From: Pacificibacter marinus
GTDB taxonomy: Bacteria; Pseudomonadota; Alphaproteobacteria; Rhodobacterales; Rhodobacteraceae
Assembly (NCBI RefSeq): GCF_018860665.1
Contig: NZ_JAHKPK010000056.1
Location: 1 to 58,753, forward strand
DNA: 58,753 nt
Direction: 5' to 3'
Positions 2,662-43,696 of the stretch are shown one piece after another (position 1 is the stretch's first letter; each line of letters opens with the position of its first letter). The notes under the pieces were generated by a model. The model searched no databases, was not told the DNA's origin, and worked only from the letters and a program-made list of their open reading frames with translations. Made by a program: the position numbers and the translations under genes.

Positions 2662-2751
2662 TAACGATAGCAAACTTCCGATACATAAGGGGCTAGTCAA
2701 ACTTATGATAATTGCCTTGCGAGGTTTGTACTCATATTCCAATGTAGATTG

Positions 2752-3711
2752 ATGAACACAACGCTTACCTTTTCCTGCAACCGTTTTGAAGATGCACAGG
2801 CGCACCTTTCAGAATCGTATTGCCGCCATCGGCTGGTGCCTTTGGGCGGGCGGCCTATCGAGTTATCACATGTTTCAGCGTCATTTGGGACAGAAGCCTT
2901 CAATACCTTGAGTTATGGCGCAGAAATTGAAGTGAAGGCGAATGGTTTCGAGGGGTTCTATATGTTCGAGATGCCGCTGCATGGTGGTGTCGATATTTCA
3001 ATTGGTCAACAGCAGGCGCAATCGCAGCCTGGGCGCGCACTCCTGCTTTCCCCGGGGCAGAGATTTCATTCGCGTTGGAAGCCAGACACTTACCAGTGGA
3101 TGTTGCAAATCAGTCAAAAGTCCATTCAAACTGCATTTGAAAAACGCGCGCATCGTCGGCTGGATGCGGAAATCGTGTTTGATCCAGTGATTGAACTCGG
3201 GACGCCTCATGGACAATTCTTGCAAACGGCTATGAGTGATTTGGCACATTATATGGGTAATTACGATTCCGCACAGGGAGACATGTTTCAGCAACGGTTT
3301 GATACTGTTGTTGAGTTGTTAATTTCAAATTTGCCATATTTTCGCAATGGCTCGCCAGTTCCAGAGCGGCTGTATGCCACGCCGCGACATGTTCATCGCG
3401 TGGTTGAAATCATGCAAACCCGCTTTCATGAGGCGCTCTCAGTCGCTGACTTGGCGGTGGAGGTGGGCGTCTCTGAACGCGCACTTTATGATGGGTTTCA
3501 GCGGTATTATCAAAAACCGCCCTATGAGGTGCTAATGCGAATTCGCATGGATGTTGCGCGCAGCCTCATACGAAAAGATGATTTACCTTTGTCGGCAGTG
3601 GCTAGGCGCGTAGGTATGCCGCATCAAGGACGGTTCTCAGGGTTGTACCGAAAAACCTTTGGAGTGCGGCCATTGGCCGACCGGAGAACGCGGCACAAGC
3701 TAAAAGAGTAG
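2752..3711 (+). CDS. AraC-family transcriptional regulator of the TrpA/TrpB-like operon
   Basis: About 319 residues. The N-terminal two thirds resemble the AraC-binding-like sensor domain (PF14525 type), with CRHRLVPLGG near residue 27 and a GFYMFEMPLHGG segment near residue 70. The last 100 residues form the double helix-turn-helix: LSVADLAVEVGVSERALYDGF, then a second motif ending GRFSGLYRKTFGVRPL. ATG 2752 is preferred; a TTG one codon earlier is possible. It lies 154 bases upstream of the TrpA-like gene on the same strand, so it is the likely local activator. The AraC at 11832-12845 shares the same sensor signature (CDHRLEPMG), suggesting that the two regulators sense related molecules. 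Ligand unknown. Confidence 0.88.
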   Translation: MNTTLTFSCNRFEDAQAHLSESYCRHRLVPLGGRPIELSHVSASFGTEAFNTLSYGAEIEVKANGFEGFYMFEMPLHGGVDISIGQQQAQSQPGRALLLSPGQRFHSRWKPDTYQWMLQISQKSIQTAFEKRAHRRLDAEIVFDPVIELGTPHGQFLQTAMSDLAHYMGNYDSAQGDMFQQRFDTVVELLISNLPYFRNGSPVPERLYATPRHVHRVVEIMQTRFHEALSVADLAVEVGVSERALYDGFQRYYQKPPYEVLMRIRMDVARSLIRKDDLPLSAVARRVGMPHQGRFSGLYRKTFGVRPLADRRTRHKLKE

Positions 3712-3865: not shown

Positions 3866-4636
3866 ATGGCACGCCCGAACTTAAAAAACAATGGCCTGCT
3901 TTCTCAACGAGAAGCGCCAGTTTTAAGTTGTTATTTTCCGCTAGGAGATCCTAAGGTCCCTGTGGATTTGGTCGATATTTATGCCGATCATGGGGTCGAT
4001 GTCCTGGAAATAGGACTTGCGTCTGATCACCCTTTTTTAGACGGGCCCGATGTCAGTGCCTCAATGAAACGCGCGGATGTAGACCGAGCGCGAAAAGATT
4101 TGGATCGCGTGATGAATCACCTATCCAAACGTAGGGTTGCTCCGAAAATTTTGTTGATGGGCTATGTTGAGCAGGCGCATAAAGGTCGAGAGGATACTCA
4201 CTTTTGGTCGGGGATCGATAGTTTCCTAAGTGTTGGGTGTAGCAATGAACATATCGCACAGCAAATCGAAAAAACCGCCATCGGGGCAGGGGTCGCACCT
4301 TCTGTCTTCGTGGGATGGCCTATCGTGGACCATGACATTGATGCGGTTAGAAAGGCGACGTTTTACGTGATGCTTCAAGCTGGCGCTGGGCAAACAGGAC
4401 CGCGCAAAGAGTTGGATCCGGAAAACCGCCAACGTATCCTGCAGTTGCGTGATGCCGGTGTCGATGTTCCGATTTTGTTGGGGTTTGGCATTTCCAACGG
4501 GGCCCAAGCACGTGAAGCAATTTCACTAGGGGCGGATGGCGTCGTTGTGGGATCTCAAGTCTTAAGGGCTGCGCTTGAGGGAGATAAGGTATTGAAATCT
4601 TTATTTACAGATTTGCGGAGTGGGCTTGATGCGTGA
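3866..4636 (+). CDS. TrpA-like (tryptophan synthase alpha family) protein 1, probable retro-aldolase
   Basis: A 256-residue TIM-barrel protein of the TrpA family. Genuine TrpA splits indole-3-glycerol phosphate into indole and glyceraldehyde 3-phosphate. The acid/base pair is kept: Glu48 in VLEIG (TrpA Glu49) and Asp59 in PFLDG (TrpA Asp60). The phosphate-gripping end is also kept: GQTG near residue 176 and GFGISNGAQ with GADGVVVGS near residues 210-230. The middle (after LMGYVEQAHKG) is very divergent and carries an insertion-like stretch, so the substrate probably differs. It is the first gene of an operon with a kinase, a sugar-type importer, a TrpB-like protein and a second TrpA. No trpC, trpD, trpE or trpF is nearby, so a catabolic aldolase role is more likely than tryptophan synthesis. 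Confidence 0.85.
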   Translation: MARPNLKNNGLLSQREAPVLSCYFPLGDPKVPVDLVDIYADHGVDVLEIGLASDHPFLDGPDVSASMKRADVDRARKDLDRVMNHLSKRRVAPKILLMGYVEQAHKGREDTHFWSGIDSFLSVGCSNEHIAQQIEKTAIGAGVAPSVFVGWPIVDHDIDAVRKATFYVMLQAGAGQTGPRKELDPENRQRILQLRDAGVDVPILLGFGISNGAQAREAISLGADGVVVGSQVLRAALEGDKVLKSLFTDLRSGLDA

Positions 4637-6116
4637 TGGAACACTGATCATTGGATTTGATATCGGCTCAACGGCTGTCAAAGCGGGTCTGTTCAACATT
4701 GATGGTACAGTCGTCGATCAGTGGAGTCGTTCTTATCCGACGTCTCGACCAGGGCCGGGTTTGGTTGAACAAGATCCACAAGACTGGTTGGATGGTATCC
4801 AAAATGCGATCGATGCCTTGCTTGAAGGGCGTGATGCCAATTGCGTAGGGGCAATTGGCATATGTAGCCAAGTCAATACAGAGGTGTTTGTTGATGCGTC
4901 AGGCGTACCATTATGCCCCGCGATAACGTGGCAAGACGTGCGTGCCGCAGATCAAGCCACCGCTTTGAAAGACCGTATCACGCCGGCGCTTAAGCAGGCG
5001 TGGTGGGGGACTGATATGCCGATTGGGGCAAGTCATGTGATGGCCAAAATGCAATGGATGGAACAAATGCATCCAGATATTTGGGACCGCACATGCTATG
5101 TCTTGTCGCCTAAGGACTATTGTCTTTTTAAACTTGCAGGTGTTGCCGTTTCTGATCCCATTGCATCGTTCGGTCAGGTGGGCACAGACCTTGAATATAT
5201 CTCGCCACTTCTTGACTTGATGCCTGGGGCATCAAAGCGTTTGCCTCCCTTGCGCTTTTTCACCGATGTTGTTGGAGAGATGGAACTTGGAAGTCACAAA
5301 CGCAAAGTGCCTGTCGTTTCTGGCACAATGGATGCATGGGGAAACCTATTTGGCTGTGGTGTATATGAACCGGGACAAGGCATGTATATCAGCGGCACAA
5401 GTGAAATCTTGTCGGTCGTTGGCAGCGAGCGGATTGGAGCTTCTGGGGTTGTAACCTTTGCCACCGTGGACAATTTGGTGGTAAATGCAGGCCCCACTCA
5501 AAGTGGCGCGGACAGTCTGCGGTGGTGGGGCAATGTCGTGGACAAGACCCCAGCAGAATTGATCGCCTTGGCTGAGCAAGTGGATCGCGCGCAAAGCAAT
5601 GTGCTTTTCCTTCCGCAGCTGGAAGGTGAGCGTGCTCCAATTTGGAATTCTAATATACGAGGATCATTCATCGGGTTGGACAGTCGAACATCAGGCCCAG
5701 AGTTTGCAATGGCCGTTTTGGAGGGCGTTGCTATGTCAGCGCGCCATTTGTTTGATGCTTTGGGTCAAGCCGCAGGCGCTCAGCCAGATTATCTTCTGTA
5801 TGGCGGTGGCGGTGCGCGTTCGGATTTGTGGAGCCAAATCAGAGCAGATGTTCTTGGCGTACCGCTGCACAAATTTGAGTATGGTGATGTCGGATGCCTT
5901 GGCGCCGCCATTCTGGCCGCCGTTGGCATTGGTGCATTCCCCGATATTAAAAGCGCTGTACCAAACATGACGCGGGTCGAGAAAATCTTTGAACCAGACC
6001 CGCGCCAAAAGGCGCGATATGACACAATGTTTGAGACCTATCTGCGCGCCATTGATGCGCTGGAACCATTGACTGTTTTGAACAACAAAGAGCATCACCA
6101 CAAGATGCCAGCTTAA
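4629..6116 (+). CDS. FGGY-family carbohydrate kinase (xylulokinase-like)
   Basis: About 495 residues with the two actin-like ATPase halves of FGGY kinases. IGFDIGSTAVKAGLFN opens the N-terminal domain (phosphate-1 loop, Asp11). SGTMDAWGNLFGCG holds the probable catalytic base Asp. GTSEILS and YGGGGARSDLWSQ are C-terminal nucleotide-binding motifs. The family phosphorylates sugars, polyols or glycerol in the cytoplasm with ATP. ATG 4629 overlaps the TrpA-like stop by 8 bases and has GGAG 8 bases upstream; a GTG at 4620 is the alternative. Between a TrpA-like aldolase and an importer, it probably phosphorylates the imported compound to make the aldolase substrate. The specific substrate cannot be read from sequence. 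Confidence 0.9.
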   Translation: MRDGTLIIGFDIGSTAVKAGLFNIDGTVVDQWSRSYPTSRPGPGLVEQDPQDWLDGIQNAIDALLEGRDANCVGAIGICSQVNTEVFVDASGVPLCPAITWQDVRAADQATALKDRITPALKQAWWGTDMPIGASHVMAKMQWMEQMHPDIWDRTCYVLSPKDYCLFKLAGVAVSDPIASFGQVGTDLEYISPLLDLMPGASKRLPPLRFFTDVVGEMELGSHKRKVPVVSGTMDAWGNLFGCGVYEPGQGMYISGTSEILSVVGSERIGASGVVTFATVDNLVVNAGPTQSGADSLRWWGNVVDKTPAELIALAEQVDRAQSNVLFLPQLEGERAPIWNSNIRGSFIGLDSRTSGPEFAMAVLEGVAMSARHLFDALGQAAGAQPDYLLYGGGGARSDLWSQIRADVLGVPLHKFEYGDVGCLGAAILAAVGIGAFPDIKSAVPNMTRVEKIFEPDPRQKARYDTMFETYLRAIDALEPLTVLNNKEHHHKMPA

Positions 6117-6140
6117 CCCCAACACATGAGGAGATATATG

Positions 6141-7058
6141 ATGACCACCTTGAAAACTTCTATAACGGCACTGACGTTGGCAACGTTTGGCTGCCTTCCT
6201 GCCTTTGCGACAGACGTTAATGTTTTGACGCCTTACATGAGCTCCATTCCCACAAACGATATGGTCCAAGCATTCATAGCCGAAGGTGAAGCGCGTGGCT
6301 GGAACGTGACTGTCATCGATACACGCAACGACTTTGCCCAATTGGCATCACGTATTGAAGATACCGTAAACGCAAAAGCTGATGCGATTGTATTGGTTTC
6401 AACCACGGCTGAGTTGATTGCCGATCAGGTGGCTCTGGCTGCCGAATCAGGCATACCGGTGATCTCGCTTGACGGTGCCAAGGCTGAAAACGTTGCTGTA
6501 AATGTGACCTCCAACAACTTTGATCTTGGTGTGCAATTGTCCGAAGCCCTGTTCACGTCGCTGGATGGCAAAGGCAATATCGTGAAATTCTTCCATTCAG
6601 CGCATCCGGGCGTGTACCAACGCGAACTGGGTTTGGACAAAACACTGGCTAAGTACCCAGATATCAATGTGATTGCAGAACATTTTGTTCAGGTTCCGGG
6701 CCCTGTGGACAATGGACGTATCGCGATGGAAAATATCCTGCGCCAACATGGTGATGAAATTGACGGTGTCTGGGCCGCATTCGATGACCCTGGTATCGGC
6801 GCAGAGCTGGCTTTTGAAGCCGAAGCGCCAGACTCTTCAGCCATTATCATGGGGATCGATGGCAATGAACAAGCCGTCGATATGATCTCCTCTTGCACCC
6901 ATTTCAAAATGACTTTGCGTCAAGATTTCGCGGGTATGGCCAAAATCGGCGCGCAACAGCTCGAGGCAATCCTTGCTGGGGGCACTGCTGAAAGCGACGA
7001 AATTTATGTGACTGCGATTCCGATTACAGCGCAAAGCCTTGGAGCTGACTGCGAATGA
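6141..7058 (+). CDS. Periplasmic sugar-type binding protein of ABC importer (Peripla_BP_4, RbsB-like)
   Basis: About 305 residues. A signal peptide (residues 1-23, ending AFA before TDV) is followed by a ribose-binding-type fold: VIDTRNDFAQLASRIEDTV, then ADAIVLVSTTAELIADQV, VISLDGA, and the late IIMGIDGNEQAVDMI segment. It captures the substrate in the periplasm for the ATPase and permease encoded next. ATG 6141 is chosen because GAGGAGA (6128-6134) is 6 bases before it; the ATG at 6126 lies partly inside that ribosome site. It follows the kinase by 24 bases and overlaps the ATPase gene by 4. Ribose-family binding proteins take pentoses, hexoses, polyols and some furanone or autoinducer ligands. 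Confidence 0.9.
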   Translation: MTTLKTSITALTLATFGCLPAFATDVNVLTPYMSSIPTNDMVQAFIAEGEARGWNVTVIDTRNDFAQLASRIEDTVNAKADAIVLVSTTAELIADQVALAAESGIPVISLDGAKAENVAVNVTSNNFDLGVQLSEALFTSLDGKGNIVKFFHSAHPGVYQRELGLDKTLAKYPDINVIAEHFVQVPGPVDNGRIAMENILRQHGDEIDGVWAAFDDPGIGAELAFEAEAPDSSAIIMGIDGNEQAVDMISSCTHFKMTLRQDFAGMAKIGAQQLEAILAGGTAESDEIYVTAIPITAQSLGADCE

Positions 7059-8611
7059 TAAAGTCGGAGCCAGATAATACCACAGGGGCAGGGCAGCCAT
7101 TTTTGACGCTGCGTGGTGTGAAAAAGCACTATGGTGGTGCTAAGGCGCTTGATGGTGCTGACCTCGTGGTCGAGGCTGGCTCCGTTCACAGCTTGGTTGG
7201 CGAGAACGGTGCAGGAAAGTCGACCTTAATCAAATCCTTGTCGGGTTTGATTGCACCTGATGCAGGCGATATTTTGGTTGATGGCAAACCTGTCACTATT
7301 TCTGGCGTGAAACAGGCCGAAGCACTTGGCTTTCGGTTTATCCACCAGGAACTCAGTCTCGTGCCGCATTTTACAGCTGTAGAAAACGCATTTGTTGGAC
7401 GGACCTATCCCCGCAAGGGCCCCTTCATTGATAGAGCGCAAATGCGGCAAACCATTGCAGAGACAGCGCGCAATATTGCCCCCGATCTACCATTGGATAT
7501 TCCTGTTGCAAAGATGACGACGGGGCAAAAACAGCTTGTGGAAATCATTCGCGCGTTGGTGGGCGCCCCTGCACGTTTGGTGGTGATGGATGAACCAACC
7601 GCCTCTTTGTCAGATGGCGAAGCGGCGCGTTTGCACCAAGCTGTCAACCGTATGTCCGAACAGGGTGTCGCGGTGATTTTCATTTCGCATCGCCTTGATG
7701 AGGTCATGCAAATTTGCGACAGCTACACGGTTTTGCGCAATGGCTGCACTGTTGGGGCAGGGCGCATTGCACAGACAGATCGTGCCGGTCTGGTTCATTT
7801 GATGTCTGGGCGTGAAGAATTGCGTGGGGCCGCACATATTCCCCCTGTCGGCAATCCTGTGGTTCTGCGTTTGCGTGATGTGCCATATGGCACGCGCGAT
7901 AGTCGGGTTTCTTTTGATGTCCGCGCAGGCGAAATCGTGGGCCTATATGGTCTTGTCGGGGCGGGGCGCTCGTCATTGATGAAACTGATTTGGGGGGCGT
8001 CAAAACATTCTGGCGGACAGATCGAACTTGACGGCACAGAGTTAAGGGCGGGACGTATCGGCGACAGGATCGCCAAAGGGGCGGCCTATGTCCCTGAAGA
8101 CAGGCGTCACGAAGGCCTGATCACCAGCCGTTCGATCGCGGATAATATCTCGATTGCGCAATTGCCTTCCATGCGCACTTGGAATGGATTGCCTTGGACA
8201 AGCCGACGCAAATTGGTGTCACGCAGCAAGACGGTTCAAACAACATTATCTGTTAAAATGGGGTCGCCATGGGATGGTCCATTGACGCTGTCTGGTGGCA
8301 ACCAACAAAAGCTTTTGTTCGGGCGATGGTACGGTCGTGACACGCGATTGCTGATCCTCGATGAACCAAGTCGCGGTGTCGATGTCGGCGCTAAGGCCGA
8401 AATTCACGACCTTGCACGCCGCTTTGCCGCAGATGGCGCCGCCGTTTTAATGACGACCAGTGACATGGATGAACTGATGGCCCTAAGCGCACGTGTTCTT
8501 GTGCTTGCCAGCGGTGAAATCACCGCTGAGTTTTCGGGCGAAACCCTAACCCCAAGACGCGTCATCGACGCAGCTTTTCAACACCAAACAGAAAAAGAGA
8601 CCCACGCATGA
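7055..8611 (+). CDS. Sugar-type ABC importer ATPase, two nucleotide-binding domains (RbsA-like)
   Basis: A 518-residue tandem ATPase. Domain 1 has Walker A GENGAGKST (residues 49-57), a signature-like MTTGQKQLVEI and Walker B LVVMDEPTASL. Domain 2 has a degenerate Walker A, GLVGAGRSS, signature LSGGNQQKLLFGRW and Walker B LLILDEPSRGVDVG. The weak second Walker A is normal in the RbsA/MglA/XylG group. It powers uptake with the permease encoded at 8608. The start codon overlaps the binding-protein stop (ATGA) and its stop overlaps the permease start, indicating translational coupling. Confidence 0.93.
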   Translation: MIKSEPDNTTGAGQPFLTLRGVKKHYGGAKALDGADLVVEAGSVHSLVGENGAGKSTLIKSLSGLIAPDAGDILVDGKPVTISGVKQAEALGFRFIHQELSLVPHFTAVENAFVGRTYPRKGPFIDRAQMRQTIAETARNIAPDLPLDIPVAKMTTGQKQLVEIIRALVGAPARLVVMDEPTASLSDGEAARLHQAVNRMSEQGVAVIFISHRLDEVMQICDSYTVLRNGCTVGAGRIAQTDRAGLVHLMSGREELRGAAHIPPVGNPVVLRLRDVPYGTRDSRVSFDVRAGEIVGLYGLVGAGRSSLMKLIWGASKHSGGQIELDGTELRAGRIGDRIAKGAAYVPEDRRHEGLITSRSIADNISIAQLPSMRTWNGLPWTSRRKLVSRSKTVQTTLSVKMGSPWDGPLTLSGGNQQKLLFGRWYGRDTRLLILDEPSRGVDVGAKAEIHDLARRFAADGAAVLMTTSDMDELMALSARVLVLASGEITAEFSGETLTPRRVIDAAFQHQTEKETHA

Positions 8612-9540
8612 CATCCTTTGTCCGTCGTTACGGGACCTTGATGGCGCTTGTGGCAATCATCGCTGCATTTTCCATCGCGTCTCCGCAGGCTTTCGGGACT
8701 GCTTCCAACTTGATCAACATAACGCAACAAATGACGCTTCTGGCGATTGTTGCCATCGGCGCCACGATTGTGATGGCGGTTGGAGAGTTTGATCTCTCGA
8801 CGGCTTCGGTCGTGTCTTTTGGAGGTATTTTCTCTGTCTTTTTGTTCAAGCTTGGCATCCCTGCGCCCCTTGTGTGCCTTGCTGTTCTCGTCGCCGCAGG
8901 TGCTTTCGGTGCCGTGTCCGGCTTTATCGTTGCCCGCTTCGAGGTTTTGTCTTTCATCACCACTTTGGCCATCGGTACGATTGTCGGAGGCGTTACGTTT
9001 TGGCTTTCCAACGGGGCAACGCTGTTTGGCGATATACCAACCGGATTTAGAGATTTGGCGCGGGGCAAAAGCTTTGGCATTCCGATTTTGACGTTTTGGT
9101 TGCTTGGCGTTTCCATATTGGCGTGGATTTTACTCGATAAAATCGAAATCGGTCGCCGTCTCTATGCCATTGGCGGCAATCGCGAAGCGGCGCGCTTGGC
9201 TGGTGTGCGGATTGTGTCCAACACCACGTTTGCCTTTGTGTGCTCCGCAATTTTAGCCGCCTTGGTTGGGATGTTGCTGACAGGCCGAATTGGCAGCGCC
9301 AGTCCTACAGGTGGCGGTGGCTTTCTACTTTCGGCCTATGCGGCTGTCTTTCTTGGCATGACGGCTTTCCGTGAAGGAGAGGCAAACGTGCCAGGCACGC
9401 TTGTGGGGGCTGCGATCATTGCGGTGGTCGGGAACGGCTTGACCATTCTTGGCGTGTCGACGTTCATGCAAGATATCATTACAGGTTTGATCATCCTTGC
9501 AGCTGTCTTGGTGCGGCGCACCGGCGCACAGGGAAGATAA
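8608..9540 (+). CDS. Sugar-type ABC importer permease (RbsC-like, BPD_transp_2)
   Basis: 310 residues with about eight to ten membrane spans. The family motif VGEFDLSTASVVSFGG lies around residue 55 and the EAA-like loop AIGGNREAARLAGVR near residue 187. It probably forms a homodimeric channel with the tandem ATPase. It overlaps the ATPase gene by 4 bases and ends 2 bases before the TrpB-like gene. As is usual in this family, there is no cleaved signal peptide. Confidence 0.92.
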   Translation: MTSFVRRYGTLMALVAIIAAFSIASPQAFGTASNLINITQQMTLLAIVAIGATIVMAVGEFDLSTASVVSFGGIFSVFLFKLGIPAPLVCLAVLVAAGAFGAVSGFIVARFEVLSFITTLAIGTIVGGVTFWLSNGATLFGDIPTGFRDLARGKSFGIPILTFWLLGVSILAWILLDKIEIGRRLYAIGGNREAARLAGVRIVSNTTFAFVCSAILAALVGMLLTGRIGSASPTGGGGFLLSAYAAVFLGMTAFREGEANVPGTLVGAAIIAVVGNGLTILGVSTFMQDIITGLIILAAVLVRRTGAQGR

Positions 9541-9542
9541 TC

Positions 9543-10736
9543 ATGGGGATTGAGACAAAAAATTCTACAAAAAACGGGCGTTTTGGTCATTTTGGTGGGC
9601 AATTCGTAGCTCCGATTTTGCTGCCTGTTCTTGATCGACTGGAAGCTGCGTTTGACGACGCGCGGAAAGACGCAGAATTTCGCGATACCTTGAATCAACT
9701 GCTGCACCGCTATGTGGGCAGGCCGACACCTTTGTTCGACATCCCGCGATTTGCCGCCCGTAAAGGTGGTGCGCAAATTGTATTGAAACGCGATGATTTG
9801 ACCTTCAACGGTGGGAATTACGCCAATTCCGCCGTCGGGCAATGCCTTTTGGCAAAACGCATGGGTCTAAATGCCGTTGTGGCAGATACAGGTTCAGGAC
9901 AGAACGGGATTGCCACGGCGGCGGTGGCCGCGCGGTTCGGGATGAAATGCACAATTTACATCGGTGCAAGTGATGCGGCACGCCAACAGAGCACGGTCAA
10001 AAAGATGACTCTCTTTGGGGCCAAAGTGCAAATCGTCGAAGACGCGGATCGCGCTTTGAGCGCGGCAACCAGTGCCGCAACACGCCATTGGATGGGCCGT
10101 AGCGACACAACAACCTATGTTGCCGGTGCCCCCATCGGGCCGCATCCTTACCCTGAAATGGTCGCGGCATTCCAAGCCGTGATTGGCAGAGAGACCCGTT
10201 TGCAGTTGATAGATCAAGGTCTTGCGCCTTCGATTTTCGTCTCTGCAGTGGGGGGCGGCGCGTCGACCATCGGGTTGTTTTCTGCGTTTCTAGACGATCC
10301 GCAAGTGCGTTTGATGGCGGTAGAAGGTGCGGGCGAGGGAGGCGAGAAATCTGCGCATTCAGCGCGTTTGGGACGCGGGCGTCGGGGTATTTTTCACGGC
10401 GCAGAAACAATGGTTTTGGCTGATGCGCATGGTCAAATTATCTCTACTTCTTCGATTGCTCCGGGGCTTTCCTATCCGGGGTCATCGCCGCAGTTGGCTC
10501 ATTTGGTCGAAACGGGACGGATTGAAACGATGGAGGTATCGAATGCTGCCGCCAAGGCTGCCGTTTTACGCCTTGCGAAACGTGAAGGTATTTTACTGTG
10601 TCTTGAGGCAGGTCATGCCTTGGCTGCCGCCGAAGGTCTTGCCGCGCAACTGTCACCTGATCAAACCATTGTCGTGATGGCGCAGTCATCCGGAGACAAG
10701 GATATTGAAACTCTAGTGGAAGAGATCCCACAATGA
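9543..10736 (+). CDS. TrpB-like protein lacking the PLP-binding lysine
   Basis: A 397-residue protein that aligns with tryptophan synthase beta along its whole length (FGHFGGQFV, GRPTPLFDIPRF, VLKRDD, GQCLLAKRMG, GPHPYPEMV, AVGGGASTIG, SSGDKDIE). Key catalytic positions are changed. The Schiff-base Lys (Lys87 in Salmonella TrpB, in GGAHKTN) is Tyr93 in GGNYANS. The neighbouring His is Asn92, Glu109 is Asp115, GQHG is GQNG, and Asp305 is Ser310. Without the Lys it cannot form the usual internal aldimine, so beta-replacement with serine is unlikely. It may be a scaffold or activator of the TrpA-like proteins, or have a new activity. It is the sixth operon gene and overlaps the second TrpA by 4 bases. 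Confidence 0.9.
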   Translation: MGIETKNSTKNGRFGHFGGQFVAPILLPVLDRLEAAFDDARKDAEFRDTLNQLLHRYVGRPTPLFDIPRFAARKGGAQIVLKRDDLTFNGGNYANSAVGQCLLAKRMGLNAVVADTGSGQNGIATAAVAARFGMKCTIYIGASDAARQQSTVKKMTLFGAKVQIVEDADRALSAATSAATRHWMGRSDTTTYVAGAPIGPHPYPEMVAAFQAVIGRETRLQLIDQGLAPSIFVSAVGGGASTIGLFSAFLDDPQVRLMAVEGAGEGGEKSAHSARLGRGRRGIFHGAETMVLADAHGQIISTSSIAPGLSYPGSSPQLAHLVETGRIETMEVSNAAAKAAVLRLAKREGILLCLEAGHALAAAEGLAAQLSPDQTIVVMAQSSGDKDIETLVEEIPQ

Positions 10737-11575
10737 CCCAAAGTGCCACGACACCGAAAACGCGCCGGATTGACTCGATGTTTAAACGGCTTAAAGCAGA
10801 AGATAAATCAGCGTTTGTGACGTATACAGTTGCGAATGATCCTACCTTTGAGGCGTCTCTGGCCTTGATGCATAAATTTGTTGCTTCGGGCATTGACCTT
10901 ATTGAGATTGGTCATCCGTTTTCAGATCCAATTCTCGATGGTGCGACAATACAAAAAGCGAACATTCGCGGACTTGCATCTGGCGGAAACTTGGATCGTA
11001 CATTGGATCTGTGCGCAGCTTTTCGGCAAACGGATCCTGTGACGCCATTAGTGTTGATGGGATACGCCAATCCGCTTGCGGTGATGGGATATGAACACTT
11101 TGCACAACGTGCGGCTGCTGCGGGTGTGGATGGGTTGATCGCAGGCGATTTCCCCTTACGCGAAGCCGGTGATCTGCTTGATGCTTTGGCACGCTCTGGA
11201 ATATTCATGATCCCGATGGCTGCCCCCACGCTTGAAGCAAAAGATTTCACATCTGAGCATCCAGCTGTCGGTGGCTTTCTATATTGTATCCCTGTTGTTG
11301 GCCCGACGGGTGGCCCTTCGGCCTCAATCGAAGCCATCGCAGCAGGCGTTGCTGAATGCCGCAAAGTCAGCACGTTACCTGTAATGGTCGGCTTTGGTGT
11401 GAAAACGCCCCAGATGGCGGCGGACGTCGGACAGGTGGCTGATGGCGTGATCGTTGCGACGGCGCTTATCGATATGTTTCAGGGAAAACTGAATGGTGAT
11501 GATCCTCAAGGCTCTGATTATTTGGACTATGTTGCAGCCCAGATAAATCAATTTCGAATGGCCATCGACAAATGA
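10733..11575 (+). CDS. TrpA-like (tryptophan synthase alpha family) protein 2, probable retro-aldolase
   Basis: 280 residues and closer to canonical TrpA than the first copy. It has FVTYTVANDP at the N-terminus, IEIGHPFSDPILDGATIQ with Glu58 and Asp69 at the two catalytic positions, LMGYANPLAVMGYEHF, GVDGLIAGDFP, YCIPVVGPTGG (phosphate loop) and GFGVKTPQM. It could therefore still do retro-aldol cleavage of an indole-3-glycerol-phosphate-like compound. Its start overlaps the TrpB-like stop by 4 bases, the arrangement of true trpBA, so the two products may form a complex. It is the last gene of the operon; 256 bases of unassigned sequence follow before the convergent AraC gene, with no obvious terminator hairpin. 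Confidence 0.88.
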   Translation: MTQSATTPKTRRIDSMFKRLKAEDKSAFVTYTVANDPTFEASLALMHKFVASGIDLIEIGHPFSDPILDGATIQKANIRGLASGGNLDRTLDLCAAFRQTDPVTPLVLMGYANPLAVMGYEHFAQRAAAAGVDGLIAGDFPLREAGDLLDALARSGIFMIPMAAPTLEAKDFTSEHPAVGGFLYCIPVVGPTGGPSASIEAIAAGVAECRKVSTLPVMVGFGVKTPQMAADVGQVADGVIVATALIDMFQGKLNGDDPQGSDYLDYVAAQINQFRMAIDK

Positions 11576-11831: not shown

Positions 11832-12845
11832 TCACAAACGCCTCGCCTTGCGCAGGATTTCGCTTGGTGTGCAGCCGAATTTACGACGGAAATGTTCGGA
11901 AAATCGCCCGAGATGATAAAAACCTAGCTGCATTGCAACATCGGTGACATTGGTGCCAGGCTCGGCGTGGCTGAGTTCCTGCCAAGAGCGTTCCAATCGC
12001 AGATCGCGGAGCACTGCCATCGGTGATCGACCCCGCCCAGCCCGAAATGCCATCTGAAGCGCGCGTTCACTGACGCCTGTTTCACGTGCCAAAGTGCCGA
12101 GCGTGAGCGGCTCTGCAATATGCGCGCTCATATACTCTTCTGCCAGCCGCACAGCGCGCGGCAAAGCGCCAGATTTTTCAAGGCTTTGTTCAGAAAGGTT
12201 GTGCCGCTGGGTCTGCAAAAGCCCGACCATGAGGGTTGTTTCCAATTGCTGCCCCATAAGGCCGCCAGTGCCCAGCACGCCATCGCCGCTCATCGCGTAG
12301 TTCAGAAGGCCGAGAAAGGCTTTGCCTTCTTGCGCACGCATATCATTTGCGCCGCAGAACCTTAGGCTTTGCCCGTCAGGCAAGCCGAAATGACTGCGTG
12401 CTGTGCGCTGCAACGCATCTCGGCGGACTTGAATCATCAGTTGTGTACAGCCTTCACCCCAAATCATGCAGGTGCTTTCGCTTGGATTCACAACGCCACT
12501 GCGACCCCCGCCGATCTCGTGGCAGTTTGTGCCGTTCGAGATCGAGGCATGGCCGCTCAAAGGGTATTGAAATAGATAGAATTCTTTCAGGGCCCCTGGA
12601 ATGATCATGGTTTTTGCCGAATAAGTCATCACATTGATTGACAGGTCGCTTCCCGCCAATCGATTGTGCCGAGCGTCGAAACCTCTTTTGCCCATGGGTT
12701 CCAGTCGGTGGTCGCAATAGACCTGTGCAACGCGCGCGCGGGCTTCATCCACATCCTGAGAGGTGAAAAATGGTGAGCAGGACAGCGGTAAATGCCGCGG
12801 CCGTCCCGTGTCTGCCATATTCTGTATTGCCCCAGTATTGTCCAT
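11832..12845 (-). CDS. AraC-family transcriptional regulator of the SDR-styAB-like operon
   Basis: About 337 residues, starting at ATG 12845 (MDNTGAIQNMAD). A much longer upstream extension is open but lacks family similarity. The sensor domain has YCDHRLEPMGKRGFD near residue 43 and FYLFQYPLSGHASI. The C-terminal AraC domain has LTLGTLARETGVSERALQMAF, then FYHLGRFSEHFRRKFGCTPSE. It is divergent from the SDR/monooxygenase operon that starts 134 bases away, so it very likely controls it. It belongs to the same subfamily as the AraC at 2752-3711. AraC regulators are typical companions of group E indole/styrene monooxygenases. Confidence 0.88.
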   Translation of the reverse strand: MDNTGAIQNMADTGRPRHLPLSCSPFFTSQDVDEARARVAQVYCDHRLEPMGKRGFDARHNRLAGSDLSINVMTYSAKTMIIPGALKEFYLFQYPLSGHASISNGTNCHEIGGGRSGVVNPSESTCMIWGEGCTQLMIQVRRDALQRTARSHFGLPDGQSLRFCGANDMRAQEGKAFLGLLNYAMSGDGVLGTGGLMGQQLETTLMVGLLQTQRHNLSEQSLEKSGALPRAVRLAEEYMSAHIAEPLTLGTLARETGVSERALQMAFRAGRGRSPMAVLRDLRLERSWQELSHAEPGTNVTDVAMQLGFYHLGRFSEHFRRKFGCTPSEILRKARRL

Positions 12846-12979: not shown

Positions 12980-13756
12980 ATGCGAGGGCTGAAGGATAAA
13001 GTTGCGATTGTACCCGGTGGTGCCACAAAAATTGGCGCGGCTGTGGTTCAGGCCTTTCGCGCCCATGGCGTGAAAGTTGTAATCGCGGATATCGACGCAA
13101 AAAGCGGTAAGGCACTTGAGGCGGACGGGGTGACGTTCGTCGAAGCAAATATCTGTTCGGATGAAGATATTGCCAAGGTCGTCACCACAGCAACCCAGAC
13201 ATATGGCCGAATTGATTTTCTTGTAAATGTCGCCGCGACCTATCTCGACAATGGGGTGGAAAGCACGCGGGCAGAATGGCTGGAAGCTTTGGATGTAAAC
13301 ATTGTTGGCTCGGTCATGTTAATGCAGGCGGCACGTGCGCAGCTTGCGAAAAACAAAGGCGCCATTGTGAATTTCGGCTCGATCTCTGCACGTGTGGCGC
13401 AGACCGGCCGCTGGCTTTATCCAGTGTCAAAGGCCGCGATTTTGCAGTTGACGAAAAATCAGGCGATGGATTTGGCCCCCGAGGGCATCCGCGTGAATGC
13501 CGTTTCACCGGGGTGGACGTGGTCGAACATCATGGACGGTCTTACAAATGGCGATCGCGAAAAGACCGACAGGGTCGGCGCGGATTATCACCTGTTTCCA
13601 CGGGTCGGGGACCCTGAAGAGGTGGCCCAAGCGGTGATATTCTTGTGTTCGGACGAGTCTTCGTTCGTGACCGGGACCGATATTCGCGTGGATGGTGGTT
13701 ATTCGGCGATGGGACCTGAGGGCAAAAGTCCGGCTATCCCGCGCCTGATGGATTGA
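12980..13756 (+). CDS. Short-chain dehydrogenase/reductase in the monooxygenase operon
   Basis: 258 residues with a classical SDR fold. The cofactor loop is GGATKIGAAV instead of the usual TGxxxGxG. IDFLVNVAA stands for the NNAG motif, with the first Ala/Gly positions changed. The active site is Ser in GSISARV with YPVSK (Tyr/Lys). The C-terminal VTGTDIRVDGGYSAMGPEG tail is normal. Ribosome site AAGGGAGA lies 6 bases before ATG. It is the first gene of an operon with the StyA/StyB-type pair 46 bases downstream. SDRs beside indole monooxygenases are thought to act on an oxidised indole (for example a dihydrodiol or indoxyl-level intermediate); the role here is inferred. Confidence 0.88.
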   Translation: MRGLKDKVAIVPGGATKIGAAVVQAFRAHGVKVVIADIDAKSGKALEADGVTFVEANICSDEDIAKVVTTATQTYGRIDFLVNVAATYLDNGVESTRAEWLEALDVNIVGSVMLMQAARAQLAKNKGAIVNFGSISARVAQTGRWLYPVSKAAILQLTKNQAMDLAPEGIRVNAVSPGWTWSNIMDGLTNGDREKTDRVGADYHLFPRVGDPEEVAQAVIFLCSDESSFVTGTDIRVDGGYSAMGPEGKSPAIPRLMD

Positions 13757-13801: not shown

Positions 13802-15031
13802 ATGAAACGTATCACCATCGTAGGTGGGGGCCAGTCGGGCCTGCAACTTGCTATCGGCCTTTTGCAAAAGGGCTATGACGTTAAGATTATTCAGGACCGC
13901 ACCGGCGACCAGATTGCTGCGGGACGGGTTCTTTCGTCGCAATGCCAATTCGACGCATCCCTAGACCACGAACGCGCCCTTGGCATCAATTTTTGGGAAG
14001 AGGCTTGCCCACCGGTTGAAGGGATTTCTTTCACCGTGCCGGCCCCCGAAGGCGCGGGCAAGGCGCTGGAGTGGTCTTCACGGCTTGATGCCAAAGGCCA
14101 ATCGGTCGACCAGCGGGTGAAAATGCCGCGCTGGCTTGAGGAATTCAGCCGTCTGGGCGGCGATCTGGTGATTGCGTCTGCCGATATTGCTATGCTGGAA
14201 CAGGAATCCAAGACTGCTGATCTGGTGATTGTCGCCTCTGGCAAGGGCGAGATTGGAAAACTCTTTGAACGCGATGCAGAGCGTTCGCCGTTTGATGCGC
14301 CACAGCGTGCGCTGGCGTTGACCTATGTCCATGGCATGACGCCGCGCGAGAATTTTTCGGCGGTGAACTTTAACCTTATCCCTGGTGTTGGCGAATACTT
14401 CGTTTTCCCCGCGCTGACCAAAGCCGGCCCGTGCGATATTATGGTGTTCGAGGGTGTGCCGGGTGGCCCTATGGATTGTTGGAAAGATGCCACCACGCCT
14501 GAGGCACATCTTGAGACTTCGCTGAACATTCTTAAGACTTACTTGCCTTGGGAATATGCCCGGTGTGGCAATGTCGAGTTGACCGATGAGAACGGAATTC
14601 TTGCTGGGCGTTTCCCTCCAACGGTACGTAAACCTGTCGCAACCTTGCCATCTGGGGCAAAGGTTTTGGGTCTTGGCGATGCTGTATGCCTCAATGACCC
14701 GATCACGGGGCAGGGTGCGAACAACGCGGCGAAGGCGGCGGCGGTCTATTTTGACGCCATTCTTGCACAGGGTGATAAGCCGTTTGATGAGGATTGGATG
14801 GTCGCAACCTTTGAGCAATTCTGGGACTATGCGCAATGGGTTGTCCGTTGGACCAATATGATGCTCTTGCCGCCGCCACCCTTTGTGCTGAACATCATGG
14901 GCTCAGCGCAGGTTTTGCCGAGGCTCGCAAAACGCATTGCTAACGGGTTTGACGATCCGCGTGATTTCTTTCCGTGGTTCGCCGATGAAGCGGCGGCGCA
15001 AGAGTATCTCACCAGCCTTCAGGCGGCTTGA
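13802..15031 (+). CDS. StyA/IndA-type (group E) FAD-dependent indole/styrene monooxygenase
   Basis: 409 residues with the single-Rossmann PHBH fold of StyA. FAD-binding VGGGQSGLQLAIGL lies at residues 7-20, and the second flavin motif, LGLGDAVCLNDPITGQGANN, lies near residue 290. Substrate-site residues align with positions reported to separate indole from styrene monooxygenases (recalled from the literature). Where styrene enzymes have N46/V48/H50, this one has Ser45, Gln47 and Gln49; where they have Y73/H76, it has Val72 and Ile75. That is closer to the indole type. It uses FADH2 delivered by the reductase encoded 1 base downstream and would epoxidise indole at C2-C3, leading to indoxyl or, further on, isatin. 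Confidence 0.87.
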   Translation: MKRITIVGGGQSGLQLAIGLLQKGYDVKIIQDRTGDQIAAGRVLSSQCQFDASLDHERALGINFWEEACPPVEGISFTVPAPEGAGKALEWSSRLDAKGQSVDQRVKMPRWLEEFSRLGGDLVIASADIAMLEQESKTADLVIVASGKGEIGKLFERDAERSPFDAPQRALALTYVHGMTPRENFSAVNFNLIPGVGEYFVFPALTKAGPCDIMVFEGVPGGPMDCWKDATTPEAHLETSLNILKTYLPWEYARCGNVELTDENGILAGRFPPTVRKPVATLPSGAKVLGLGDAVCLNDPITGQGANNAAKAAAVYFDAILAQGDKPFDEDWMVATFEQFWDYAQWVVRWTNMMLLPPPPFVLNIMGSAQVLPRLAKRIANGFDDPRDFFPWFADEAAAQEYLTSLQAA

Positions 15032-15032
15032 T

Positions 15033-15518
15033 ATGGTGGATGTAGCGACCTTTCGTCAGGCCATGGGGCTTTTCCCCGGTGCTGTGACGCTAATTACCAC
15101 CGGTAAAGATACGCTGAGGCGTGGAATCACGGCGACGGCGGTGTGTTCGGTCACCGACAATCCGCCGTCTATCCTTGTCTGTGTCAATCGCAAAACCGGC
15201 ACGTGTCAGGAGATTGAGCGTTCTGGAAAATTCTCTGTGCAGCTTTTAGATGGCGATCAGTCTGATGTGGCGCTTTGTTTTGCTGGTGCGACAGGGAAAA
15301 CAGGGGCCGATAAATTCACCCCAGCAGACTGGACCGCCTGCGTTGTGGGTCTGCCGCGTCTTAAGTCAGCATTGGCGAGCCTGTCTTGTGAGGTCACGTC
15401 CTCAAGTGAAAACGGCAGTCACATGGTCTTTATTGGGGCTATAAAGGATACGGCGCTGCGCGAGGGAGAGGCCTTGATCTATGCGCAGTCTCATTTCAGA
15501 CGCTTAGACGCGGTCTGA
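15033..15518 (+). CDS. StyB/IndB-type NAD(P)H:flavin oxidoreductase
   Basis: 161 residues of the flavin reductase-like (FMN-binding split barrel) family: FRQAMGLFPGAVTLITTG, RGITATAVCSVTDNPPSIL, a Cys-Val-Asn-Arg segment, SGKFSVQLL and SHMVFIGAI. It supplies reduced FAD to the oxygenase encoded immediately upstream. ATG 15033 is one base after the oxygenase stop. About 60 to 65 percent of its first 70 residues match the reductase at 22021-22512, so the two are paralogues. A terminator follows. Confidence 0.9.
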   Translation: MVDVATFRQAMGLFPGAVTLITTGKDTLRRGITATAVCSVTDNPPSILVCVNRKTGTCQEIERSGKFSVQLLDGDQSDVALCFAGATGKTGADKFTPADWTACVVGLPRLKSALASLSCEVTSSSENGSHMVFIGAIKDTALREGEALIYAQSHFRRLDAV

Positions 15519-17703: not shown

Positions 17704-17773
17704 CGATTAACAAAAAATAGACCCATAAAAACCGACTAAACGGTGGGGTTTCTTAACCAACAATGAGGAAAAC

Positions 17774-18766: not shown

Positions 18767-18856
18767 AATCGTCTCTTGGCGGGGATGATGATTGATCCCG
18801 CCATTTTGAATGCTCGTATTGTTCGCCAATAAATTCCCACTTGAAAGGACACTGTC

Positions 18857-19369: not shown

Positions 19370-19380
19370 GGGATTTTGAT

Positions 19381-20694: not shown

Positions 20695-20727
20695 GCAAGC
20701 TGCCCCATGTACAAAAAGGACAAACCA

Positions 20728-23440: not shown

Positions 23441-23487
23441 TAAGGATGTCCAACCCATAAGGAAAGTAGAAAGAGGTTAAAGTGTGC

Positions 23488-26413: not shown

Positions 26414-27153
26414 GTTTCACCGCCTGATACAGAGATGCTCTGTCCTGTGACCATATCCGATCCTTCTGCGCACAGCCAAAGCACTGCTGCGGCGACATCT
26501 TGCGGCGGCACAAGGCGGTGCATGGGATTTGTCGCCTCCAAAGTTGCGCGGGCCTCTTGCGCTGTGCGGCCGGTTTTTTCCACAATATTGGCGATAGAAC
26601 GTTCGGTCATCTCAGTGTCTAGAAAACCTGGGCAGATGGCGTTCACAGTGATGCCTTTGCGGACCAGTTCAAGGGCCACGGATTTGACCATGCCGACCAC
26701 ACCATGTTTGGCAGCAGCATAAGGCGCCACATAAGGGTAGCCTTTGATGCCTGCCGTGGATGCTATGGCGATCAATCGTCCCCAAGGCTTGTCTTTCATA
26801 GCCTTCGCACCCTCGCGCAACGTCAAAAACGTACCCGTGACGTTGACCGACATGATCCGTTCAAACGCTTCAAGTTCGGTTTTGACAAAAGGGGCGCTTT
26901 CAGATGCGCCTGCATTTGCCACAACAATATCGGGGGCGGCAGCGGAAATGGCTGCTGATATGACCGCCTCATCAGTGATGTCTGCGACAGTGGCGGTTAT
27001 GTTTTCATGCTGCGCGGCAACCGCCTGCAACGGGGCCAAACGTCGTCCACAAATCGTGACCTGCGCGCCAGCTTCGGCCAGTTGCAGGGCGATGATCGCC
27101 CCCACACCAGACCCGCCACCTGTTACGAAGGCCGTTTTTCCAATCAAACTCAT
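26410..27153 (-). CDS. Short-chain dehydrogenase/reductase in the 2-aminobenzoyl-CoA operon
   Basis: 247 residues: TGGGSGVGAII cofactor loop, DIVVANAGAS, Ser in IAIASTAGIKG, YAAAKHGVVGMV (Tyr/Lys pair) and AICPGFLDTEMTERSI. It resembles 3-oxoacyl-ACP/3-hydroxyacyl-CoA-type dehydrogenases. Its start overlaps the monooxygenase/reductase stop by 4 bases. It may reduce the ring ketone left after the preceding step or oxidise a ring alcohol. Confidence 0.88.
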   Translation of the reverse strand: MSLIGKTAFVTGGGSGVGAIIALQLAEAGAQVTICGRRLAPLQAVAAQHENITATVADITDEAVISAAISAAAPDIVVANAGASESAPFVKTELEAFERIMSVNVTGTFLTLREGAKAMKDKPWGRLIAIASTAGIKGYPYVAPYAAAKHGVVGMVKSVALELVRKGITVNAICPGFLDTEMTERSIANIVEKTGRTAQEARATLEATNPMHRLVPPQDVAAAVLWLCAEGSDMVTGQSISVSGGET

Positions 27154-37116: not shown

Positions 37117-37119
37117 GGT

Positions 37120-42901: not shown

Positions 42902-43696
42902 TTATGTTGTGGGAACAAGAGCGAGTGCGCGGATGGGCGAGCCTGTGCCGTTCACAATTTTAAGCGGTGCTGTGACAAGGATGGCTCCTTTGGCGGGCAG
43001 AGCACTTAGGTTGGTCAGTGAGGCAAGGCCATAGCGGTTGTGTTTGTGCAAAAGGTTGTGGGCAGGAAAGGGGATTTCAAATCCGCCTGCGGCACCTGCG
43101 TCGGTGCCGATGCACTGCGTGCCCCAGCCCAATGCTTTTTTCTCTTCCATCAAGTAAATAATGGCTTCGGCATTTGGTCCGGGGGTATGAGGGCCTGTTT
43201 CATCCGCATTCAGAAATTTGTCTGGGTCGGTGTTGTACTGATCCCAATCTGTACGCATTAGCACCCATTCGCCTTCTTTGATCTCGCCGTGCTCGGCTTC
43301 CCATGCTTTGATGTGCTCAGGTGTCAGCAAGAAATCGGGATCGGCTGCGGATTCTTTCGTGCAGTCAATAACATTGGCTGGGGCGACAAAATTTTGCGGC
43401 GCGATGGTGTCGACAGAGCCGTCAGGAAAATCTTTGCCCGTGATCCAGTGATGTGGCGCATCGTAATGCGTGCCGGAGTGTTCGCCCAGCTTTAGCCAAT
43501 TCCAAGCCCAAAACGGACCGCGATCGCCGTATTTTGAAATTTCGTGGATTTCGATTTTTGGTGTGTCATCAGCCAATTCTGGGGGCAGCTTCAAAAGTGG
43601 CGTATCAGGGCCCAATGGGGCCGTGCAGTCGACGACTTTAATGGATCCGTCCAGAAGGCTGGAGGCAAGGCTGGCAAGTGTATCTTGTGTGGACAT
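42902..43696 (-). CDS. Isatin hydrolase-like cyclase-family metal hydrolase
   Basis: 264 residues of the cyclase family. The metal motif GEHSGTHYDAPHHW places His73, His77 and Asp79 at the positions I recall as the Mn(II) ligands of Labrenzia isatin hydrolase. The context WAWNWLKLGEHSG, ADETGPHTPGPNAEAI, GTDAGAAGGFEIPFPAHNLL and SPIRALALVP also matches that enzyme. It opens isatin (indoline-2,3-dione) to isatinate in the cytoplasm. It is the first gene of the minus-strand row leading to the 2-oxoacid oxidoreductase, which makes a 2-oxoacid product such as isatinate a natural next substrate. A kynurenine formamidase-like role is the main alternative. Confidence 0.9.
   Translation of the reverse strand: MSTQDTLASLASSLLDGSIKVVDCTAPLGPDTPLLKLPPELADDTPKIEIHEISKYGDRGPFWAWNWLKLGEHSGTHYDAPHHWITGKDFPDGSVDTIAPQNFVAPANVIDCTKESAADPDFLLTPEHIKAWEAEHGEIKEGEWVLMRTDWDQYNTDPDKFLNADETGPHTPGPNAEAIIYLMEEKKALGWGTQCIGTDAGAAGGFEIPFPAHNLLHKHNRYGLASLTNLSALPAKGAILVTAPLKIVNGTGSPIRALALVPTT

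What the first reader, a model, noticed from the sequence alone, without database searches (positions are those of the whole stretch)
3866..11575. A TrpA-kinase-importer-TrpB-TrpA operon: tryptophan synthase relatives recruited to catabolism
Seen: seven genes with overlaps or tiny gaps encode TrpA-like 1, FGGY kinase, ribose-type ABC importer, TrpB-like and TrpA-like 2 behind an AraC regulator. No other trp gene is present. Known: TrpA cleaves indole-3-glycerol phosphate by a retro-aldol reaction; FGGY kinases phosphorylate sugars, polyols and glycerol. Inference: a compound such as an aryl- or indolyl-glycerol or C-linked sugar is imported, phosphorylated, and split to glyceraldehyde 3-phosphate plus an aromatic or other leaving group. 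I know of no described pathway with this gene set.
Basis: partly seen in the sequence, partly recalled or inferred. Interest (0 to 1): 0.92.

Follow-up and report, generated by a model that had tools for sequence, protein, structure and literature searches.

The report
Indole-releasing operon with disarmed tryptophan synthase
A conserved bacterial operon appears to import and phosphorylate an indole-carrying sugar-alcohol-like compound and split it with a tryptophan-synthase pair whose beta subunit has lost its catalytic lysine, so that indole is released for breakdown instead of being made into tryptophan.

Summary
The seven-gene operon is real, tightly packed and conserved. Pacificibacter marinus has it gene for gene (64-93% identity). 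Three genomes of the Rhizobium lusitanum genus carry it without the first TrpA. (1) The TrpB-like protein is no longer a PLP enzyme by sequence: the Schiff-base lysine (K87) is Tyr in 5 of 5 family members and Lys in 10 of 10 ordinary TrpBs read. E109, N236 and D305 are changed too, yet dN/dS is low (0.03-0.11), and both TrpAs keep catalytic E49 and D60. (2) The operon travels with an indole monooxygenase module, next door in the window and in P. marinus, on opposite sides. IndA occurs in 5 of 5 genomes with the lysine-less TrpB and 0 of 29 with a related kinase but no such TrpB seen beside it. Isatin hydrolase: 4 of 4 tested against 0 of 2. Best reading: an indolyl-glycerol-type compound is imported and phosphorylated, and TrpA2 with the TrpB pseudoenzyme releases indole for oxidation. 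A plant precedent exists (TSB-like). Not shown: substrate, any activity, TrpA1's role. Against: 26 of 32 related kinase loci show no Trp gene in the DNA held.

The parts
2749..3711 (+). AraC-family regulator 1, probable operon regulator
   Evidence: Pfam AraC_binding_2 and HTH_18; best NCBIfam hit is the anthranilate dioxygenase regulator AndR, 114 bits, below its cut-off of 350; 75% identical copy in front of the P. marinus operon
3866..4636 (+). TrpA1: divergent TrpA-like protein, probably acting without a TrpB partner
4620..6116 (+). FGGY-family kinase of a distinct subfamily
   Evidence: FGGY_N/C; XylB model 254 bits, cut-off 380; N86, D238 and W240 invariant in 36 of 36 rows, of which L011 and L041 are the same contig
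6141..7058 (+). Periplasmic binding protein, CUT2 (ribose) type; the open frame also allows a start at 6126
   Evidence: Peripla_BP_4; best PDB hits 4rs3 and 5hko, CUT2 sugar-binding proteins
7055..8611 (+). CUT2 ABC importer ATPase
   Evidence: AraG model 436 bits, below its cut-off of 689
8608..9540 (+). CUT2 ABC importer permease
   Evidence: Pfam BPD_transp_2
9543..10736 (+). TrpB-prime: TrpB-like protein without the PLP lysine, presumed non-catalytic partner of TrpA2
   Evidence: TIGR00263 427 bits; Y93 at K87, D115 at E109, S241 at N236, S310 at D305, with the same or like changes in 5 of 5; clade support 100/100; dN/dS 0.03-0.11 in the 4 of 6 pairs that could be computed
10733..11575 (+). 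TrpA2-prime: TrpA-like, presumed lyase subunit
   Evidence: Trp_syntA 217 bits; keeps E49, PFSDP and D60 in 5 of 5
11832..12845 (-). AraC-family regulator 2 of the indole module (likely start 12845)
   Evidence: 51% identical copy in P. marinus beside the same SDR
12980..13756 (+). SDR, IifB-like by position
   Evidence: conserved next to IndA in P. marinus (80%), R. lusitanum and ASV20 (67% each)
13802..15031 (+). IndA-type indole monooxygenase
   Evidence: Smoa_sbd; PDB 7z4x E 1.8e-178, then 9lrq E 4.8e-169 (named Alanine-phosphoribitol ligase in its record), then 9j0h 5.8e-60; 4 of 6 published indole-monooxygenase fingerprint residues here, 6 of 6 in the three Rhizobium copies
15033..15518 (+). 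Flavin reductase partner of IndA (likely start, by eye; open frame from 14937)
   Evidence: Pfam Flavin_Reduct; relatives beside IndA in P. marinus (62%), R. lusitanum and ASV20 (38% each)
27150..29432 (-). Bifunctional monooxygenase/reductase of the 2-aminobenzoyl-CoA or salicylyl-CoA type (possible later step; the aminobenzoyl-CoA link is recalled)
   Evidence: NF006101 1205 bits, cut-off 1078; 84% identical copy in P. marinus near isatin hydrolase
42902..43696 (-). Isatin hydrolase (possible later step)
   Evidence: PDB 4j0n isatin hydrolase B, E 4e-125; present in P. marinus, R. lusitanum and ASV20

Best explanation
The operon imports a small indole-carrying polyol, most simply indole-3-glycerol or a close relative. 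The CUT2 importer brings it in, the FGGY kinase phosphorylates the terminal hydroxyl to give indole-3-glycerol phosphate or a homologue, and TrpA2-prime performs the TrpA retro-aldol cleavage to glyceraldehyde 3-phosphate and indole. TrpB-prime, a TrpB without the PLP lysine, binds and activates TrpA2-prime but cannot convert indole to tryptophan, so indole leaves the complex. The linked AraC/SDR/IndA/flavin-reductase module oxidises it towards anthranilate, possibly with isatin hydrolase. TrpA1, a BX1-like TrpA without most of the usual TrpB-contact loop, is probably a stand-alone lyase or handles another isomer. Shown: gene set, conservation, residue losses, linkage and co-occurrence. Inferred: substrate, complex formation, every reaction.
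For: Conserved operon in two families. K87 is Tyr in 5 of 5 TrpB-primes and Lys in 10 of 10 ordinary TrpBs, read from similarity hits without any motif filter; likewise E109 to D, N236 to S and D305 to S/A. H86N, H115N and G378S in 5 of 5. Purifying selection: dN/dS 0.03-0.11, dS near saturation. E49 and D60 kept in both TrpA families; D60 is described as taking the indole N1 proton (PMC12930369, passages), which points to an N-H ring. IndA in 5 of 5 TrpB-prime genomes, 0 of 29 others; same contig in 4 of 5. Isatin hydrolase in 3 of 3 fetched TrpB-prime genomes tested plus the window, 0 of 2 others. Precedent: a plant TSB-like pseudoenzyme activates TSA to release indole (PMC12727527; abstract, passages, sections 8 and 10). 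K87T mutant alpha-beta complexes have been crystallised (titles of 2trs and 1ubs).
Against: Of 32 loci of the kinase subfamily, 26 show no TrpA/TrpB in the DNA held (some contigs are cut), so the importer and kinase can work without them. TrpA1 occurs in three genomes that lack IndA (L041, L051, L052), so TrpA1 itself is not tied to indole oxidation. TrpB-prime also lost K167, a known alpha-contact (recalled), and its changed residues are not those of plant TSB-like. TrpA2-prime has Gly234 to Ala at the phosphate site. The window and P. marinus IndA differ from the fingerprint at two of six positions. The five TrpB-prime genomes amount to two clades. No listed paper in the searches describes indole-3-glycerol as a bacterial nutrient (listings only, partly capped).
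Confidence: 0.58

Rival explanations
1. Another aromatic C-linked polyol (not indole-3-glycerol) is imported and cleaved; the former PLP pocket of TrpB-prime, now carrying the conserved Tyr, binds or acts on the leaving group.
For: The replacement motif FNGGNYANS is invariant in 5 of 5, more than mere decay needs; window and P. marinus IndA carry Q and G at two fingerprint positions, so their aromatic substrate may differ; TrpA1 and TrpA2-prime differ, allowing two substrates.
Against: D60, which handles the indole N1 proton, is kept in both TrpA families; Rhizobium IndA matches the indole-monooxygenase fingerprint 6 of 6; isatin hydrolase co-occurs.
Confidence: 0.2
2. Ordinary sugar or polyol use: importer and kinase serve a common pentulose or alditol, and the Trp-like genes are incidental passengers or sugar-phosphate aldolases without an aromatic ring.
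For: 26 of 32 kinase-subfamily loci show no Trp gene in the DNA held; binding protein closest to CUT2 sugar-binding proteins; best family score of the kinase is XylB.
Against: Trp-like genes stay in the operon in two families at low dN/dS; kinase is below the XylB cut-off (254 of 380 bits), with XylB H78 and N234 replaced by invariant N86 and A239 (33 of 36), followed by invariant W240; IndA co-occurrence 5 of 5 against 0 of 29.
Confidence: 0.13
3. Tryptophan salvage: the imported compound becomes indole-3-glycerol phosphate and tryptophan synthase makes tryptophan from it; TrpB-prime is only a modulator.
For: In genome G082 (same contig as locus L041) the AraC-TrpA1-kinase-importer set runs straight into an ordinary, lysine-bearing trpA-trpB, the only other trpA found there. 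The L041 genome lacks IndA.
Against: In the window-type operon TrpB-prime cannot form the PLP Schiff base by sequence, and the cell has its own trpAB elsewhere. Salvage would not call for a linked indole monooxygenase.
Confidence: 0.07

Closest known systems
Plant TSB-like/TSA pair (PMC12727527)
   Same: A TrpB paralogue that lost tryptophan formation is paired with a catalytic TrpA; proposed outcome is free indole
   Different: Plant TSB-like changed E105 (to Ala, in Solanaceae Ser or Pro) and D300 (to Glu), T. maritima numbering; here the PLP lysine itself is Tyr, with E to D and D to Ser/Ala at those sites, in a bacterial operon with importer and kinase, for catabolism and not defence
Maize BX1 / indole-3-glycerol phosphate lyase
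   Different: About 21% identity; sits beside an FGGY kinase; activity unknown
Tryptophan synthase TrpA-TrpB
   Same: Family by sequence, gene pair in one operon, TrpA catalytic residues kept
   Different: TrpB-prime lacks K87, E109, N236 and D305; two TrpA genes; no biosynthetic trp genes seen nearby
iif/ind indole-degradation cluster (PMC6221969, PMC12538310, passages)
   Same: IndA/IifC-type oxygenase, flavin reductase and SDR beside each other, with an AraC regulator
   Different: Here joined to an operon that would generate indole inside the cell; IifA was not looked for; isatin hydrolase present
FGGY kinase with CUT2 importer systems (pentulose and alditol use)
   Same: Gene pair and architecture
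   Different: Subfamily members are 42-88% identical to the query kinase and the other FGGYs returned at most 32%; own active-site motif

Membership tests
Tryptophan synthase beta (TrpB) | Scores above the curated trpB model cut-off | tested here: met
   TIGR00263 427.1 bits, cut-off 392.45
Tryptophan synthase beta (TrpB) | PLP Schiff-base lysine K87 | tested here: not met
   Tyr in 5 of 5 TrpB-primes; Lys in 10 of 10 ordinary TrpBs read from similarity hits without a motif filter
Tryptophan synthase beta (TrpB) | E109 and D305 catalytic carboxylates | tested here: not met
   Asp in 5 of 5; Ser in 2 and Ala in 3 of 5; E and D in 10 of 10 ordinary TrpBs
Tryptophan synthase beta (TrpB) | Forms tryptophan from indole and serine | not testable with these tools
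   needs enzyme assay
TrpA / indole-3-glycerol phosphate lyase | Catalytic E49 and D60 | tested here: met
   TrpA2-prime 5 of 5; TrpA1 5 of 5
TrpA / indole-3-glycerol phosphate lyase | Phosphate site G234-S235 | tested here: inconclusive
   TrpA1 has GS; TrpA2-prime has AT, while an ordinary Rhizobium TrpA has GT
TrpA / indole-3-glycerol phosphate lyase | Cleaves indole-3-glycerol phosphate | not testable with these tools
   needs enzyme assay
Plant TSB-like pseudoenzyme | E to Ala and D to Glu at the two key sites | tested here: not met
   Here E to Asp and D to Ser/Ala (paper section 8): may work like it, is not shown to be a member
Plant TSB-like pseudoenzyme | Binds and activates TrpA, no tryptophan formation | not testable with these tools
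   needs pull-down and assay
Group E indole monooxygenase (IndA/IifC) | Fingerprint S46-Q48-M50-V/I73-I76-A96 | tested here: inconclusive
   Window and P. marinus 4 of 6 (M50 is Q, A96 is G); three Rhizobium copies 6 of 6; no residue of the styrene type (column mapping mine)
Group E indole monooxygenase (IndA/IifC) | Two-component system with flavin reductase | tested here: met
   Flavin_Reduct gene directly downstream; relatives beside IndA in P. marinus (62%), R. lusitanum and ASV20 (38%); function not assayed
Isatin hydrolase | Sequence relation to characterised isatin hydrolase | tested here: met
   4j0n E 4.2e-125 over 262 residues
Xylulokinase (XylB) | Curated XylB score | tested here: not met
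   254 bits, cut-off 380
Xylulokinase (XylB) | Substrate residues H78 and N234 (roles recalled) | tested here: not met
   N86 in 36 of 36 rows, A239 in 33 of 36

The most novel reading that the evidence does not exclude
Indole-3-glycerol or a close indolyl-polyol is an environmental nutrient used by many Alphaproteobacteria. A dedicated importer and kinase bring it in as the phosphate. Lineages with an ordinary TrpAB turn it into tryptophan, while in two lineages a PLP-less TrpB pseudoenzyme, evolved separately from the plant one, turns TrpA into an indole-releasing lyase that feeds indole oxidation.
Probability: 0.4. Interest if true: 0.9.

Novelty: new variant of a known kind. Interest (0 to 1): 0.8.

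Why it matters
If true, this would be a bacterial counterpart of the plant TSB-like pseudoenzyme, reached by a different and more drastic change (loss of the cofactor lysine), and a catabolic use of tryptophan synthase. It would name a nutrient, indolyl-glycerol, for which the searches here listed no described uptake route, and explain why TrpA, TrpB, a sugar-type importer and an indole monooxygenase travel together. This protein scores above NCBI's trpB cut-off, so automated annotation would probably call it tryptophan synthase beta, and Trp-pathway calls could be wrong for such genomes. The model makes clear predictions for purified proteins.

Tried and rejected
AlphaFold2 on TrpB-prime (alignment of four sequences) gave mean pLDDT 39 and was not used. 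The first genome-contig scan with TrpA1 found no relative; TrpA1 as plasmid query gave 35 records at 30.5% identity or less, of which one (L019) was opened and is an ordinary trpFBA. A class-wide TrpB search at E 1e-140 and a phylum-wide TrpA1 search gave only the window genome (1 of 385; 1 of 398), so wider spread rests on the kinase route. On plasmids and phages every TrpB-prime match is under 60% identity; the best in the rows listed are 45.5% (30 of 121 records listed) and 42.9% (5 of 18 listed).

Rejected: that TrpB-prime is a decaying gene (low dN/dS, invariant new motif). Rejected: that the operon is the cell's only tryptophan synthase (ordinary copies on C3). Considered and left open: that neighbours of the TrpA-free kinase loci reveal the substrate; they differ from lineage to lineage (read by eye).

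Limits: absence of TrpB-prime in the 29 comparison genomes was judged from the kinase flanks, several on cut contigs, not from whole-genome searches. IndA was sought at E 1e-30 in five genomes and at 1e-100 in 27; one search has no positive of its own, the same query having rung. Isatin hydrolase was sought in five fetched genomes only, not in G1155 or the 27. G1155 entered the IndA count because it had TrpB-prime. In one search the ordinary TrpBs were picked with a motif that contains the lysine, so that its 9 of 9 was partly by construction; one search repeated the reading on similarity hits without a motif and gave 10 of 10. The tree lacks L124 and uses L122, which falls into two pieces (frameshift or truncation). 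Four of the nine loci scanned for an ordinary TrpA (L121, L122, L123, L127) gave none to that filter; one search shows TrpA motifs in L123 and L127, which are therefore missing from the TrpA tree.
Full report
WHAT IS THERE. The seven genes lie at the stated coordinates, on one strand, with gaps of -17, +9, -4, -4, +2 and -4 bases, behind an AraC-family gene. Pfam and NCBIfam confirm the families. So the operon is extra to tryptophan biosynthesis.

THE TRPB-LIKE PROTEIN IS DISARMED. It scores above NCBI's trpB cut-off (427 against 392 bits), yet alignment to solved TrpBs puts Tyr where the PLP lysine stands. In 5 of 5: K87Y, H86N, E109D, H115N, N236S, D305S/A, S377Q/P, G378S; E350 and R175 are kept. 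As control, ten ordinary TrpBs were read from tblastn hits of the window protein without any motif filter: 10 of 10 have K87, E109, N236 and D305; position 377 is S in 8 and C in 2, so that site is less telling. My first control (9 of 9) had picked frames by a motif that includes the lysine and is replaced by this one. Numbering is that of Salmonella TrpB; K87, Q114 and K167 appear in PDB titles, roles of the other residues are recalled. The five form one clade, support 100/100. dN/dS is 0.029 (window against P. marinus), 0.058 (L023 against L024) and 0.095-0.107 (P. marinus against Rhizobium); two of six pairs could not be computed, and dS is near saturation. The gene is kept by selection, not decaying.

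THE OPERON KEEPS COMPANY WITH INDOLE OXIDATION. From 256 bases after TrpA2 come a divergent AraC gene, an SDR, a flavoprotein monooxygenase and a flavin reductase. The monooxygenase is closest to PDB 7z4x (E 1.8e-178), which I recall as VpIndA1; the VpIndA1 paper was seen only as a reference entry. A second close chain, 9lrq (E 4.8e-169), bears the name Alanine-phosphoribitol ligase, which I did not look into. Of the six published indole-monooxygenase fingerprint residues (PMC13101512 section 11), the window and P. marinus copies have four and the three Rhizobium copies six; none has a styrene-type residue (column mapping mine). In P. marinus the same four genes lie on the other side of the operon. 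In R. lusitanum and G1155 IndA lies on the same contig about 21 and 36 kb away; in ASV20 on another contig.

CO-OCCURRENCE. IndA is in 5 of 5 genomes with TrpB-prime: window and G1155, P. marinus, R. lusitanum and ASV20. It is in 0 of 29 genomes with the related kinase but no TrpB-prime seen beside it: two (E 1e-30) and 27 (E 1e-100). Unweighted, the chance is 1 in C(34,5), about 4e-6, but the five are only two clades, so the real weight is less. Isatin hydrolase is in 3 of 3 fetched TrpB-prime genomes tested and in the window, and in 0 of 2 others. A block with isatin hydrolase, IorA/IorB-like and CrtI-like genes is shared by window, P. marinus, R. lusitanum and ASV20.

THE WIDER KINASE-IMPORTER FAMILY, TOLD AGAINST MY READING TOO. 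One scan with the kinase kept the best 80 of 102 relatives: 32 loci at 42% identity or more, 48 at 32% or less. Of the 32, three carry TrpB-prime and TrpA2-prime (one of them with TrpA1), one carries TrpA1 with an ordinary trpA-trpB (L041, same contig as G082), two carry TrpA1 (L051, L052, contigs cut), and 26 show no Trp gene in the DNA held, several on cut contigs. Importer and kinase therefore can serve without TrpA, and TrpA1 occurs in genomes without IndA. If the product is indole-3-glycerol phosphate, the cell's own TrpAB could take it; G082, where the operon runs into ordinary trpA-trpB, fits that. If it is an ordinary sugar phosphate, this counts against me. The kinase is not XylB by score (254 of 380 bits), and its subfamily has invariant N86, D238 and W240 (36 of 36 rows, two of them the same contig) and W128 in 34 of 36. 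The operon is rare: TrpB-prime in 3 of 148 genomes of the Rhizobium lusitanum genus; TrpA1 in 2 of 295 family genomes, own included.

MECHANISM. Import, phosphorylation of the terminal hydroxyl, retro-aldol cleavage by TrpA2-prime held active by TrpB-prime, indole release, then oxidation by IndA towards anthranilate. Precedent for the middle step: in core eudicots a noncatalytic TSB-like activates TSA and free indole is released (PMC12727527; abstract, passages, sections 8 and 10). The changed residues differ, so this would be a separate origin (inferred; no tree with plant sequences was built). Crystals of alpha-beta complexes with K87T (titles) suggest that losing this lysine does not bar complex formation. 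TrpA1's role is open.

LITERATURE. Nine searches of the held open-access library listed no bacterial TrpB pseudoenzyme, no indole-3-glycerol kinase or importer, and nothing on this gene set. Searches listed only the top 15 of 270, 30 of 103, 12 of 38 and 12 of 29 papers, and most subscription papers are not held. Indole oxidation by iif/ind clusters is known (PMC12538310 and PMC6221969, passages).

VERDICT. Observation confirmed; interpretation partly supported and sharpened. I rate it a new variant of a known kind (tryptophan synthase recast as an indole-releasing lyase inside a catabolic operon), interest 0.8.

Noticed in passing
window 35572-43696: Isatin hydrolase, two CrtI-like flavoproteins and IorA/IorB-like oxidoreductase genes form a block shared with P. 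marinus, R. lusitanum and ASV20; the role of the IorAB-like pair beside isatin hydrolase is not clear.
   Followed up: partly
window 22021-24696: HsaA/HpaB-type flavin monooxygenase (IacA-like by my reading), LysR-like regulator and flavin reductase, a possible second aromatic-oxidation module.
   Followed up: no
window 17029-21986: GntR regulator, TRAP transporter, small V4R-like protein and HpcH-type aldolase in one cluster (names mostly by eye).
   Followed up: no
window 48491-58559: LacI regulator, amidohydrolase, SDR, second CUT2-type importer, aldo-keto reductase, IlvD-like dehydratase and FAH-type gene: looks like a non-phosphorylating deoxysugar pathway (by eye).
   Followed up: no
window 1562-2383, 15743-16249, 47087-47785: Transposase-like frames (by eye) flank the gene blocks, so the region may be a mobile catabolic island.
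   Followed up: no
L018:3328-13461; also L034: Rhizobium BG6 and Root708: the same importer-kinase pair without Trp genes, next to two amidohydrolases, a gamma-glutamyltransferase-like gene, a GntR regulator and an XDH-like gene (names by eye).
   Followed up: partly
L016:1-133 (G082 contig C24) and L013:1456-1588: 133 bases spanning the trpB start are 98.5% identical at a contig end, hinting at a second trpB copy or an assembly break in G082.
   Followed up: partly
window 13802-15031: Window and P. marinus IndA have Gln and Gly at fingerprint positions 50 and 96, where Rhizobium copies and 7z4x have Met and Ala: possible shift of substrate.
   Followed up: partly
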